Shown here: in pieces, positions 45,945-52,466 of the stretch | Numbering within the stretch: position 1 is the stretch's first letter | Layout of the letters: each line of letters starts with the position of its first letter | Source: Scytonema hofmannii PCC 7110 | GTDB taxonomy: Bacteria; Cyanobacteriota; Cyanobacteriia; Cyanobacteriales; Nostocaceae | Assembly (NCBI RefSeq): GCF_000346485.2 | Contig: NZ_KQ976354.1 | Coordinates: 7,124,151 to 7,181,772 of the forward strand | Length of the DNA: 57,622 nt | Direction: 5' to 3' | The notes under the pieces: model-generated | What the model saw: the letters and a program-made list of their open reading frames with translations, nothing else | The model's database searches: none | What the model was told of the DNA's origin: nothing | Made by a program: the position numbers and the translations under genes

Positions 45945-46277
45945 ATGCCCTATGAAATCATCCTAGCACCGGAAGCTGTAGAAGACTTACGCGGTCTTAG
46001 GGCAGATGTGCGTCAAAAAGTTAGAGAAGCGATAGAAACTTTTTTAAAATACGAACCAACAAAAGTTAGTAAAAGTAGAATTAAACGTTTACGAGGGATG
46101 TCTAGACCCCAATATCGTCTTCGGGTAGATGAAATACGAGTTTTTTACGACGTAACTGATGAGACTGTAGAGATTTTGGCGATTGTGCCAAAATTAGAAG
46201 CAGAAACTTGGTTAGCGCAAGAAGGAGAACCAGATGAAGGAAGTAGCCCTAGCGGAAATTCAGAGCGATCTATCTAG
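45945..46277 (+). CDS. RelE/ParE-family toxin
   Basis: This 110-residue toxin of the RelE/ParE fold has YEIILAPEAVEDLRGLRADVRQKVREAI, then SKSRIKRLRGMSRPQYRLRVDEIRVFYDVTDETVEILAIVPK. The RLRVDEIRVFYDV strand and IVPK end are typical of the active beta-sheet. Members cleave mRNA at the ribosome or poison gyrase. The gene precedes its antitoxin and overlaps it by 44 bases in another frame. The C-terminal tail (EEGSSPSGNSERSI) exists only because of that overlap. Confidence 0.85.
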   Translation: MPYEIILAPEAVEDLRGLRADVRQKVREAIETFLKYEPTKVSKSRIKRLRGMSRPQYRLRVDEIRVFYDVTDETVEILAIVPKLEAETWLAQEGEPDEGSSPSGNSERSI

Positions 46278-46479
46278 ATATTTAGAATTAGCTGAAAACG
46301 AAGAAATAGTTATTATCAATAATGGAAAACCAATTGGAATTTTGATTGGGTTACAGTCAGATGAAGATTTATTTGATTACCAACTAGAGAATGATTCACG
46401 TTTTTTAAAGCGGATTCAGAAATCGCGGCAAAGTTTACGTGAAGGGAAAGGTGTAAAACTGGAGGATTTAGATATTTAA
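46234..46479 (+). CDS. Phd/YefM-type antitoxin
   Basis: This 81-residue antitoxin has the N-terminal Phd DNA-binding fold: MKEVALAEIQSDLSRYLELA, then NEEIVIINNGKPIGILIGL. A helical toxin-binding tail follows (ENDSRFLKRIQKSRQSLREGKGVKLEDL). It overlaps the toxin gene by 44 bases, which couples translation. The reverse order (toxin first) is known for several RelE/Phd families. It should neutralise the RelE/ParE toxin and repress the shared promoter. Confidence 0.85.
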   Translation: MKEVALAEIQSDLSRYLELAENEEIVIINNGKPIGILIGLQSDEDLFDYQLENDSRFLKRIQKSRQSLREGKGVKLEDLDI

Positions 46480-49587: not shown

Positions 49588-52068
49588 TTACTTTAGTTGC
49601 ACAAACTCATAACCTGTGTCAGTGCGAGGATTTGATCTAACTTTGACTAAGATGGCATTACCATTGCTTAAAGTTTGACTTTGCATCGCTTGTTGGAGTC
49701 CTTCACGAGTAGTATTTTGCTGTAAACCTGTAATAATCGCCTTAGTCGCCTTATAAGCCATCGCCGTTCGCCATGTCACAAGTCCACCCCAAAGTTGCTT
49801 AGAATTTGTGAGAAATGAATTATCTGAAGTTGCCGTAGGATACCAAGTTACAACAAGTATTATGCCGTTGACATTGGCTTGCCCATCCTTTAGGGTTTGA
49901 TTTGTGTAAAGCGTGGAATTTCCAAATAGATCTAACCGTCTTTTACTGGCTTGATTAGCTTTTGCTAATTCTAGAGCTTTTTGAATTCTGTTTATATGAG
50001 GAGCTAAGAACAAGCCATCTGCTCCAGTGTTTATAGCTTGAGAAATGACTGCAATTGGATTGAAGTTTGAGTCAGAAAAATCACAATGTGTAGGATTAAC
50101 ATTGCGACCAGCAGCCTCTATTGTTTTCTTAAAAATAGTTTTGAAAGACTGAGCTTCGATAGATTTGGAATCGAAACAAATGGCAATATTGTTTTTGGCA
50201 ATTTTATTAGTAACGTAATTAGAAAGGGTAACAGCAAGAACATCACTCCTGGGAACAGTGCGGAATATATAGTTGCCAATCTCATCAGAGTTTAGTGCAA
50301 AACTGGTGGGAGAGATCATAACTAACCCTCTTTGTTGATACACTGGCGCAGCGGAAATGGAAGCCTCACTAGCGTTATGTCCCACTACAGCTAAAATGCT
50401 GGCATCATTGACAAACTGGGTAGCAATATTTTGGGCTAAGGTAGGTTCATTATTATCATTAGCGATCTCTACCTGTAATAGCTTGCCATTAATCCCGTTA
50501 TCGCGATTCACTTCATCTTGAGCTTGAGCCACACCGCGCAGTATCTCTTTTGCTACATTCGGGTTACGACCAATGGGTACACTGACTGCAATTGTAAGTT
50601 GAGCGACTCCCAGACGAGACTTAGCGTTGTTCAAGTAGATTAATGCTTCGGGGTCATTCCGATTGTCTTTCAGAGATGAATTGAAGTTTTGAATAGCGTT
50701 CTCACAATTCCCCTTAGCAAGTGCTTTAACCCCAGATTCTTTGTTAGGATTTCTATCTTCTTGCACTAAAATTTTATCACCCAAGCTAATATTATTGTCG
50801 CTTACATACTGCTTATTAGCACAGGAATTTATGAGAGGTGTATGAGACATTAAGGACACTACAGTGCCACCAATAATTATTCCCACGATTCCGATGCTCA
50901 ACACTCCTATATACTGTCTAAAACGTCTACGTATAGAAATGAGATAATTTTCATTTATAGGAGTGGCTACGTCTTTTTTTTCTTGTTCCGCAATTATATG
51001 AGTTTGAATAGGTTCTACATCTTCATTTCTAAGTCCTAAAATTTGCTGTAGACGTTGCAATTCGACTTGAGTATCACTACTAATAGGGTATTTTCGTTCT
51101 ACTTCTTTTACTAATGCTTGCTCATATTCTTGTAATCTTTTTTGGTACTCTCGGTAAGGTTGTAAAACCTCATTTTCAATTACAATAGCTTCTTCAGAGG
51201 ATAGTTTTAACTTAACTTGAAACTGCTCTAATGCTGTACGACCTGTGGGAGAAATTTCACCGCGACGAGAGAAAAGTTCAACTTCTTTACGATATCTAAG
51301 CCTTGGATCGCCAAGTGGTGCTTTAGCCAGTTTGATAGTAAAACCTTCTTTGACTGGATAAATTTCGGGTCTCATCCTTGGTGCAGCTTCTTGAACTTTC
51401 TTTTTTGCATACTCATGCAATTCGTCAACCGTAATTACACCGTTGTCATTTGTATCTGCTGCTCCAGTCTCAATACCCTCGACAAGATAACGAGTGTAGA
51501 TAGATAACTCCGATCCCTTTTGCTCAAAAGAATACTGTGTTGAAGTCGAAGAGGTGAGGATAGCCCTCCCCTCTCCACCCAGTTGATTTACGACATCGAC
51601 AGAACCATCATCTTTGACTCTCATGTCCTCAGCAAAAGCACCACTAAAGCAACAGTCCAGAATCACTACCTGTCGCTTAGAAGGACTCTTTCTCATGATT
51701 TCCTGCACAAAGCTAGCTGAAACTACTGTTGCCTGAACTAGCCCTCCCTTTTCATTTTTACGAGTGCTTCGAGTTGCAAAATAAAGCCTACCGTTTTCAT
51801 CTTTTATTCCATGACCAGAGAAGTAAAGCAGTACTAGGTCATTCTTCTGACGATCTTCAAATAAGGTTTCGATGGCTTCCTCCATTGCTTGTCGCTCGGG
51901 ATTTGGCAGAGACCTTACTGTAAAACCACCAATTTCTGAATTATTTAAAACTCTTTGCATTGCCTTTACATCTTTTATTGCGGCAGGCAACGGGGTAAGA
52001 CCAGATTCACTGACTCCAATCAGCAATGCAACTTTTACTCTTTCGTTATTCTCCCCTGTTTGTGACAT
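49588..52068 (-). CDS. caspase-domain receptor: caspase, EF-hand, transmembrane, type-1 periplasmic-binding domain
   Basis: Domain order in 826 residues is as follows. A caspase/C14 p20 domain has catalytic H86 (YFSGHG) and C140 (ILDCCFSGAF). An EF-hand loop DTNDNGVITVDE at 205-216 has all ligand positions. A helical region (300-355) and a single transmembrane helix (386-408, YIGVLSIGIVGIIIGGTVVS) follow. Then comes one TPR-like unit (445-485) and a branched-chain-amino-acid-type periplasmic-binding domain (490-820: LTIAVSVPIGRNPNVAKEIL, VGHNASEASISAAPVYQQRG). The caspase is therefore cytoplasmic and the binding domain outside. Both catalytic residues are kept, so it should be an active orthocaspase controlled by ligand and perhaps calcium (inference). 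Confidence 0.85.
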   Translation of the reverse strand: MSQTGENNERVKVALLIGVSESGLTPLPAAIKDVKAMQRVLNNSEIGGFTVRSLPNPERQAMEEAIETLFEDRQKNDLVLLYFSGHGIKDENGRLYFATRSTRKNEKGGLVQATVVSASFVQEIMRKSPSKRQVVILDCCFSGAFAEDMRVKDDGSVDVVNQLGGEGRAILTSSTSTQYSFEQKGSELSIYTRYLVEGIETGAADTNDNGVITVDELHEYAKKKVQEAAPRMRPEIYPVKEGFTIKLAKAPLGDPRLRYRKEVELFSRRGEISPTGRTALEQFQVKLKLSSEEAIVIENEVLQPYREYQKRLQEYEQALVKEVERKYPISSDTQVELQRLQQILGLRNEDVEPIQTHIIAEQEKKDVATPINENYLISIRRRFRQYIGVLSIGIVGIIIGGTVVSLMSHTPLINSCANKQYVSDNNISLGDKILVQEDRNPNKESGVKALAKGNCENAIQNFNSSLKDNRNDPEALIYLNNAKSRLGVAQLTIAVSVPIGRNPNVAKEILRGVAQAQDEVNRDNGINGKLLQVEIANDNNEPTLAQNIATQFVNDASILAVVGHNASEASISAAPVYQQRGLVMISPTSFALNSDEIGNYIFRTVPRSDVLAVTLSNYVTNKIAKNNIAICFDSKSIEAQSFKTIFKKTIEAAGRNVNPTHCDFSDSNFNPIAVISQAINTGADGLFLAPHINRIQKALELAKANQASKRRLDLFGNSTLYTNQTLKDGQANVNGIILVVTWYPTATSDNSFLTNSKQLWGGLVTWRTAMAYKATKAIITGLQQNTTREGLQQAMQSQTLSNGNAILVKVRSNPRTDTGYEFVQLK

Positions 52069-52072
52069 TTCT

Positions 52073-52177
52073 TTAGCTTCCTGTTACAAACTTTTGAGCT
52101 TGTTCAATCGCGGTAATTAATTTTTGCTGAGTGCTAGCTTTGACTTTGAGTTTTTTACCGTTAGCTTCGAGTTCCAT
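52073..52177 (-). CDS. 34-residue ORF preceding the caspase receptor
   Basis: ATG 52177 opens MELEANGKKLKVKASTQQKL, then ITAIEQAQKFVTGS, and stops at 52073, four bases before the caspase gene. The sequence reads as beta hairpin then helix (ELEANGKKLKVKAST - QKLITAIEQAQKF) and is amphipathic, so it looks like a real small protein or a relic domain. Its position suggests translational coupling. No family assigned. Confidence 0.45.
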   Translation of the reverse strand: MELEANGKKLKVKASTQQKLITAIEQAQKFVTGS

Positions 52178-52466
52178 TTTAATGGTTTTGTTTTAGGACT
52201 TAAGCACTCACACGAAAGAAACCGGGTTTCTGGGCAAAGACTCATGGCTGAAACGACAGTTTTTGGTAACGGGACTTTAGTAAAAAACTAGGCTCAGAAT
52301 AGCCTCAAACAAAGATTTGGTAAAGGTTTTACATCGATTTCTCTGTGGCTCTTGATTTAACTGAACTTGAGGCCTTTTTACCTAATTGACGTATTTCCCT
52401 TGGACAGCAAGAATTTCAGGTACTTTAAAATTTTGTTAAATATTGTGTAAATAATGTAATGATAAA
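52178..52466. other. upstream region of the caspase receptor
   Basis: It contains GAAAGAAACCGGGTTTCTGG (palindrome GAAACCGGGTTTC), an A/T-rich tract near 52430-52465, and the presumed divergent promoters. No gene apart from the 34-residue ORF was seen. Confidence 0.45.

What the first reader, a model, noticed from the sequence alone, without database searches (positions are those of the whole stretch)
49588..52068. Transmembrane orthocaspase with EF-hand and extracytoplasmic ligand-binding domain
The chain joins an apparently active caspase (H86, C140), a complete EF-hand loop (205-216), one membrane helix and a periplasmic branched-chain-amino-acid-type binding domain. That is the plan of a ligand-gated protease receptor, and calcium could add a second input. 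Caspase-binding-protein fusions exist in cyanobacteria in automated annotation but, to my knowledge, lack functional description.
Basis: partly seen in the sequence, partly recalled or inferred. Interest (0 to 1): 0.75.

Follow-up and report, generated by a model that had tools for sequence, protein, structure and literature searches.

The report
Membrane caspase with outside binding domain
A cyanobacterium-like genome encodes a caspase-type protease anchored in the membrane with a small-molecule-binding domain predicted outside; the design is already in print, but its relatives show that the outside sensor has been exchanged repeatedly and often comes with a small partner protein whose gene is cut short here.

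Summary
In detail: one intact 826-codon gene encodes a caspase (His86, Cys140), an EF-hand-like loop (205-216), a helical linker, one membrane helix, a TPR-like pair and a LIV-type binding domain. The architecture is not new: caspases with ANF_receptor, PBP or Peripla_BP_6 tails are in print (2012, 2020, 2021), and ligand-triggered activation has been proposed. New here: (1) a ~125-aa gene adjoins 73 of 100 related caspase genes upstream and resembles EACC1, the partner in the two-gene EACC1-caspase system (hhalign 95%, E 4e-8); in the window only its last 39 codons remain. (2) The membrane-TPR-binding cassette also sits on kinases, CHAT proteases and STAND/AAA NTPases, and in the caspase tree the binding domain changed between type I and type II families four times, which supports a sensor role. 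(3) The EF-loop belongs to these caspases generally, not to the receptor. (4) The focal binding domain lacks a C-terminal segment kept by 25 of 25 comparable fusions, so this copy may be altered or decaying. Best reading: a ligand-gated initiator protease of an EACC1-type system; activity, ligand and metal binding are untested.

The parts
49588..52068 (-). Caspase - linker - TM - TPR-like - type I periplasmic-binding-protein fusion, 826 aa
51319..52035 (-). Caspase domain, residues 12-250; His86 at 51811-51813, Cys140 at 51649-51651
   Evidence: Pfam C14, NF047832, AF2, Foldseek best matches MALT1, then metacaspases
51613..51615 (-). Lys152, K/R in 74 of 75 caspases, in a low-confidence loop after the catalytic Cys: proposed autocleavage site
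   Evidence: the role is inference
51421..51456 (-). EF-hand-like loop, residues 205-216, between helices 190-201 and 214-228
50980..51315 (-). Helical linker, residues 252-363, shared by the cyanobacterial caspases compared; weak profile match to Tic110 repeats
50845..50913 (-). Single membrane helix, residues 386-408
   Evidence: hydropathy, charge bias
50611..50796 (-). Juxtamembrane segment and TPR-like helices, residues 425-486, part of the shared cassette; predicted outside
   Evidence: (TPR_11 only E 0.33)
49591..50601 (-). Type I (LIV-type) periplasmic binding domain, residues 490-826
   Evidence: Pfam, AF2, Foldseek
49663..49668 (-). Junction Ser801/Asn802 where the GATGxIxFxxSGDR-type segment of relatives is absent
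   Evidence: alignment; 25 of 25 other fusions with this region keep it in some form
52076..52192 (-). Remnant of the EACC1-like partner gene (partner residues 87-125, 72% identity); now at most a 34-aa ORF 52073-52177

Best explanation
It is a single-pass receptor protease of the EACC1-caspase kind. The caspase and linker lie in the cytosol; the TPR-like pair and the type I binding domain lie outside. A small external ligand, not identified, closes the binding domain; the movement passes through the TPR-like segment and the membrane helix and brings two caspase-linker units together. Proximity lets the caspase cut a flexible loop after the catalytic cysteine (candidate Lys152) and become active on Arg/Lys sites of cytosolic targets. 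Metal at the EF-loop would stabilise the last helices of the caspase, as in its relatives. In most relatives a small EACC1-like protein encoded just upstream would take part; here that gene is reduced to a remnant, so the receptor works without it or with a partner encoded elsewhere. Shown: domains, fold models, conservation, partner linkage, cassette sharing, changes of binding family. Inferred: topology, dimerisation, autocleavage, ligand gating, metal binding, output.
For: Active-site residues invariant in 75 of 75; caspase fold, best PDB match MALT1, E 3e-11. Binding fold complete in the model, with branched-chain amino-acid binding proteins among the best matches. The same TM-TPR-binding cassette occurs in 35 of 40 family genomes on protein kinases, CHAT, STAND and AAA_35 proteins. 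In the caspase tree four rows inside the clade of the PBP fusions (L076, L100, L034, L028) carry the type II family PBP_like_2; type I against type II needs 4 changes, all 4 forced by well-supported branches, although the caspases are close (the L076 caspase-linker is 79% identical to the focal one). CHAT and cassette occur fused (L163) or as neighbouring genes (L168), as expected of coupled parts. EACC1-like partner directly upstream of 73 of 100 caspases.
Against: No activity, ligand or metal data. The focal binding domain has lost a segment kept in 25 of 25 comparable fusions and has Lys773 for Asp; the partner gene is truncated. The positive-inside bias holds in the focal protein but in only 12 of 28 fusions, one of these rows being an artefact. 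Orthocaspases made in E. coli are reported to process themselves without further activation, and MaOC1 without calcium (passages of PMC5756287 and PMC7475262).
Confidence: 0.45

Rival explanations
1. Effector-release model of Kaur et al.: the EACC1 partner is the membrane sensor, and the caspase cuts itself to deploy the variable C-terminal domain as effector; the binding domain would then be output, not input.
For: This is the model printed for EACC1 systems, with TM-PBP named among the variable C-termini (PMC7159879 section 33); an EACC1-like gene adjoins most of these caspases.
Against: The same cassette is attached to kinases, CHATs and NTPases, where it reads as input; of 30 fusion loci the partner is absent upstream in 4, broken in 3 and a remnant in the window; a binding protein has no evident toxic output (inference).
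Confidence: 0.2
2. The focal locus is a decaying or repurposed copy: the caspase is still intact, but the sensor no longer binds its ligand and the partner is gone, so it is constitutive, silent or on its way out.
For: Partner reduced to 39 codons; segment lost at 801/802 and Asp773Lys; binding-domain end branch 0.45 against a median of 0.21; another caspase of this genome has a partner gene split over two frames; the one other genome held of the genus has no full match.
Against: 826 open codons, caspase signatures kept, confident model of the shortened binding domain; other fusions have end branches as long or longer (L061 0.45, L062 0.5, L068 0.73); the fusions L054 and L056 also lack the partner.
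Confidence: 0.25
3. Calcium-controlled caspase in which the EF-loop is the main switch and the outside domain only anchors or localises the enzyme.
For: Chelating positions 1, 5 and 12 are Asp, Asn or Glu in 75 of 75 and position 3 is Asp or Asn in 70 of 75, while 2, 4 and 7 vary freely; the loop has EF-hand secondary structure.
Against: The loop is also present in caspases with WD40, FGE or GUN4 tails in this genome and in two Streptomyces caspases, so it cannot explain this architecture; MaOC1 is reported calcium-independent.
Confidence: 0.1

Closest known systems
EACC1-caspase two-gene conflict system (Kaur et al. 2020, PMC7159879 section 33)
   Same: Caspase of the EACC1-associated type at the N-terminus, variable C-terminus, TM-PBP among the printed variants, small partner gene directly 5' in most relatives
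   Different: Described there as prevalent in actinobacteria and sporadic in proteobacteria; the cyanobacterial partner is a divergent relative, found by the Pfam model in only 11 of 64 members; the partner is truncated in the window; the binding domain reads as sensor rather than effector
Cyanobacterial orthocaspases with ANF_receptor (PMC3501461) or Peripla_BP_6 (PMC8283722 Table 1, 8 of 473), and MaOC6 (PMC5756287)
   Same: Same kinds of domain; receptor role suggested in print (PMC7475262 Fig. 6 legend)
   Different: The parts that I read mention no linker, partner gene, cassette sharing or change of binding family
Leu/Ile/Val-type periplasmic binding proteins (4mlc, 3td9, 1usg) and the related ligand-binding domains of metabotropic glutamate receptors
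   Same: Two-lobed fold
   Different: Fused to membrane helix and protease; Phe at the position of the recalled carboxylate-binding Thr; C-terminal segment missing
MALT1 paracaspase and metacaspases
   Same: Caspase fold
   Different: About 12-19% identity in the structural matches listed; no receptor domain of this kind (recalled)

Membership tests
Peptidase C14 / orthocaspase | His-Cys dyad in a caspase p20 fold | tested here: met
   H86, C140 invariant in 75 of 75; fold; distances not measured, no coordinates at hand
Peptidase C14 / orthocaspase | Arg/Lys-specific proteolysis | not testable with these tools
   D138 two residues before C140 is invariant, as in metacaspases (recalled)
Peptidase C14 / orthocaspase | No p10 domain (orthocaspases) | not tested
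   definition seen in passages of PMC5756287
EACC1-caspase system | Caspase of the EACC1-associated type | tested here: met
   NF047832, 168.1 bits against 140
EACC1-caspase system | Intact 5' EACC1 gene at this locus | tested here: not met
   Only codons 87-125 remain; 21 of 30 fusion loci, window included, have a full-length one
EACC1-caspase system | Partner in relatives is homologous to EACC1 | tested here: inconclusive
   For: hhalign 95%, E 4e-8 against 3 Streptomyces proteins in the same position, 2 of them above the Pfam cut-off. Against or weak: Pfam EACC1 found in 11 of 64 partners at E <= 1, best 4e-5, while DUF2604 is found in 17 of 64, best 0.0018; two single members gave no EACC1 match; own-genome best match E 0.055, below the cut-off, and in 9 of 14 control genomes matches at E <= 10 also appear, none over the cut-off
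EACC1-caspase system | Partner spans the membrane | not tested
   Gly-rich central segment seen by eye only
Type I (LIV-type) binding protein | Family profile and two-lobed fold | tested here: met
   Peripla_BP_6 98.7 bits against 31.7
Type I (LIV-type) binding protein | Amino-acid carboxylate contact (Thr) and intact C-terminal segment | tested here: not met
   F590 (F/Y in 16, Thr in 7 of 28 fusions); segment missing. The identity of the contact is recalled
EF-hand | 12-residue loop with chelators at 1, 3, 5, 9, 12 between two helices | tested here: met
   D205, N207, N209, T213, E216; helices 190-201 and 214-228
EF-hand | Profile above curated cut-off | tested here: not met
   EF-hand_5 11.7 bits against 25.9
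EF-hand | Calcium binding | not testable with these tools
   no metal modelled

The most novel reading that the evidence does not exclude
Filamentous cyanobacteria use a plug-in system of outside chemical sensors for death- or defence-type outputs: one membrane-TPR-binding cassette, or a type II binding domain in its place, is mounted on caspases, CHAT proteases, kinases and STAND NTPases, and the caspase branch works with a divergent EACC1 partner. It would be a bacterial counterpart of death receptors that couple an external molecule to an initiator caspase.
Probability: 0.35. Interest if true: 0.82.

Novelty: new variant of a known kind. Interest (0 to 1): 0.52.

Why it matters
If right, an external small molecule directly switches a caspase-type protease in bacteria, and the set of exchanged sensors tells which domain is input. 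It would make the open question of what triggers cyanobacterial caspases testable with standard ligand screens on intact relatives, and it extends the EACC1-caspase system, as far as I read, to cyanobacteria with a divergent partner.

Tried and rejected
Rejected: the EF-loop as a special calcium input of the receptor (it is shared by related caspases). Rejected: a plain branched-chain amino-acid receptor (Phe590, missing segment). Considered and dropped: GUN4, FGE or WD40 as parts of this gene (they belong to paralogues). The linker gave no Pfam family beyond chance and only a weak match to Tic110 (E 1.2e-4). Promoter and terminator scans were no better than shuffles. The partner gene was missed by Pfam and NCBIfam for two single members; profile comparison linked it to EACC1. 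Positive-inside topology is not consistent over the fusions (12 of 28; the row L069 is an artefact of its shortened ORF).

Limits and a correction. One search scored only two candidates per genome, so its fusion count is a lower bound. The model A4 used was built from partners found beside caspases, so the linkage is not fully unbiased. Both trees are quick trees with SH-aLRT support only, and the caspase tree flags a join of long branches (L041 with L067). In one search I had labelled L066 and L073, two interrupted caspase fusions, as solitary, which gave 6 changes; with right labels it is 4. L041, inside the caspase clade, was not scanned for its tail.

Full report
What is there. The gene at 49588-52068 (-) is one open frame of 826 codons. 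Residues 12-250 are a caspase (Pfam C14 E 5e-23; NCBIfam caspase_w_EACC1 168 bits, cut-off 140). The AlphaFold2 model of residues 1-376 (75 sequences, pLDDT 85) has the caspase fold, with H86 after strand 78-84 and C140 after strand 132-138; its best PDB matches are MALT1, then metacaspases. Residues 252-363 form a helical linker common to the cyanobacterial relatives compared. A membrane helix at 386-408 follows, then a TPR-like pair and a type I binding domain (model of residues 381-826, 42 sequences, pLDDT 88.2).

EF-loop. DTNDNGVITVDE (205-216) lies between helices 190-201 and 214-228, with a short strand at 211-213, as in EF-hands. In 75 caspase-linker sequences, positions 1 and 12 are invariant, position 5 is D or N in 75, position 3 D or N in 70, while positions 2, 4 and 7 are highly variable. 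That is the pattern of a metal site. But the loop is also present in the five caspase paralogues of this genome with quite different tails and in two Streptomyces caspases (L205, L209); the more distant caspase of L206 lacks it by eye and the frame of L210 breaks off inside it. EF-hand motifs in archaeal orthocaspases are already in print (PMC6426788, passages). Metal binding is therefore a property of this caspase type at most.

Catalysis. D138, C140 and H86 are invariant in 75 of 75, and residue 152, in a low-confidence loop just after the catalytic cysteine, is K or R in 74 of 75. An autocleavage site there is my inference.

How common. Matches through both halves of the protein were found in 7 of 386 cyanobacterial genomes, with one more probable (G357, lower bound), and single frames with both domains in 22 of the 80 loci kept; in two more (L066, L073) the halves lie in separate frames. 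The genome of the window has five further caspase-linker genes, with WD40, FGE (two), GUN4 or a short tail, and at least six other copies of the binding cassette, one of them truncated.

The cassette is a general sensor part. Searched alone, TM-TPR-PBP occurs in 35 of 40 family genomes. In the 40 loci fetched around a choice of its matches it is fused to protein kinases, to STAND-type NTPases often in tandem genes, to CHAT, or to AAA_35 with a CHAT-AAA_35 gene directly upstream, or stands alone, at times beside a kinase gene (BLAST labels; Pfam for a sample). In the tree of 96 binding domains the caspase label needs 4 changes, all 4 forced by well-supported branches (correcting). In the tree of 100 caspase-linkers, 31 rows form the clade that holds the focal gene (support 84): 25 carry the type I domain and four (L076, L100, L034, L028) the type II family PBP_like_2; of the other two, L101 has a 156-aa tail without a Pfam match and L041 was not scanned. 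Type I against type II needs 4 changes, all 4 forced. Keeping 'outside small-molecule binding' through changes of binding family argues that this part is the input.

The missing partner. In 21 of 30 fusion loci (window included) a full-length frame of about 125 aa ends at or close before the caspase start; in 3 it is broken, in 4 it is absent upstream (in two of these it lies downstream), in 1 the contig ends, and in the window only the last 39 codons remain. Over all architectures a match to it lies upstream of 73 of 100 caspase genes. A whole-genome search found it in 39 of 60 family genomes; 27 of 30 loci examined contain a caspase, and in 23 the caspase match starts within 50 bp of the partner match. 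Against three Streptomyces proteins in the same position (two above the Pfam EACC1 cut-off) the profile comparison gives 95% and E 4e-8 over 109 columns. Pfam's own EACC1 model matches 11 of 64 members at E <= 1, best 4e-5; DUF2604 matches 17, best 0.0018. The best EACC1 match in the window's whole genome, E 0.055 and below the cut-off, is such a partner gene; matches at E <= 10, none over the cut-off, also appear in 9 of 14 control genomes. I conclude that this is a divergent EACC1 relative, not proven by the curated model.

The focal copy. Among the 28 aligned fusions it is the only one that lacks the segment GATGxIxF..GDR where the region is covered; 25 of 25 others keep it in some form. 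It has Lys773 where the same 25 have Asp. Its branch in the binding-domain tree is long (0.45, median 0.21) but not the longest of the fusions. Residue 590, which aligns with the Thr that I recall as carboxylate contact in LIV-type proteins, is Phe (F/Y in 16, Thr in 7 of 28). So a changed or lost ligand must be considered.

Literature. PMC3501461 (passages) names an ANF_receptor metacaspase in one cyanobacterium; PMC8283722 (section 15) counts Peripla_BP_6 in 8 of 473 cyanobacterial orthocaspases; PMC5756287 (passages) describes MaOC6 as probably transmembrane with an outside receptor domain; PMC7475262 (section 11) proposes that ligands trigger autocatalysis of membrane orthocaspases; PMC7159879 (section 33; passages) mentions TM-PBP C-termini in EACC1-caspases and favours an effector role for the C-terminus. 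PMC8195603, PMC10907252 and PMC4933709 were seen in passages. Jiang 2010 was not read, only seen cited. In the listings and in the passages and sections read I saw no experimental test of such a receptor caspase and no EACC1 partner in cyanobacteria; the library lacks most subscription journals.

Verdict. The architecture is a known kind. The new points are the divergent EACC1 partner with its linkage, the repeated change of binding family, and the sharing of the cassette across effectors. The gene of the window itself is a somewhat altered member, and every functional step remains untested.

Noticed in passing
window 45945-46277 and 46234-46479 (+): Two overlapping small ORFs that look by eye like a RelE/ParE-type toxin and a Phd-type antitoxin in reverse order; no family search was run.
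   Followed up: no
G000:C1:10960990-10961358 (L203, L211) and G000:C1:4064492-4064864 (L012): The window's genome keeps one intact EACC1-like partner (before a caspase-FGE gene) and one split over two frames (before a caspase with a short tail).
   Followed up: partly
L163, L164, L165, L168: CHAT proteases with two binding cassettes in tandem; in L168 the CHAT part and the double cassette are separate neighbouring genes.
   Followed up: partly
L171, L175, L176, L180, L184, L178: Two-gene units: a CHAT-AAA_35 gene (trypsin-AAA_35 in L178) directly before an AAA_35-PBP gene, so the cassette may serve different protease outputs in trans. Pfam scans for L171 and the upstream gene of L178, BLAST for the rest.
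   Followed up: partly
L207 (NZ_CP026693.1): A 9174-nt gene annotated as caspase family protein on a conjugative Nostoc plasmid ends in the same binding cassette (36% identity).
   Followed up: no
L208 (NC_014502.1): Caspase and binding protein as overlapping neighbouring genes on a Gloeothece plasmid, with a CU044_2847-family gene next to them.
   Followed up: no
L206 (NZ_CP108083.1): Streptomyces unit of a Pfam-confirmed EACC1 gene and a caspase-nSTAND1-SBP_bac_3 protein: yet another binding family behind a caspase.
   Followed up: partly
window 50980-51315 (-): The linker profile matches repeats of a Tic110 structure (4bm5, E 1.2e-4); a related linker stands before CHAT in the own-genome protein of L020 (34% identity).
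   Followed up: partly
L191-L195: The closest kin of the focal binding domain are solitary 467-469-aa TM-TPR-PBP proteins; no kinase, caspase or CHAT neighbour was found by BLAST to own-genome references.
   Followed up: partly
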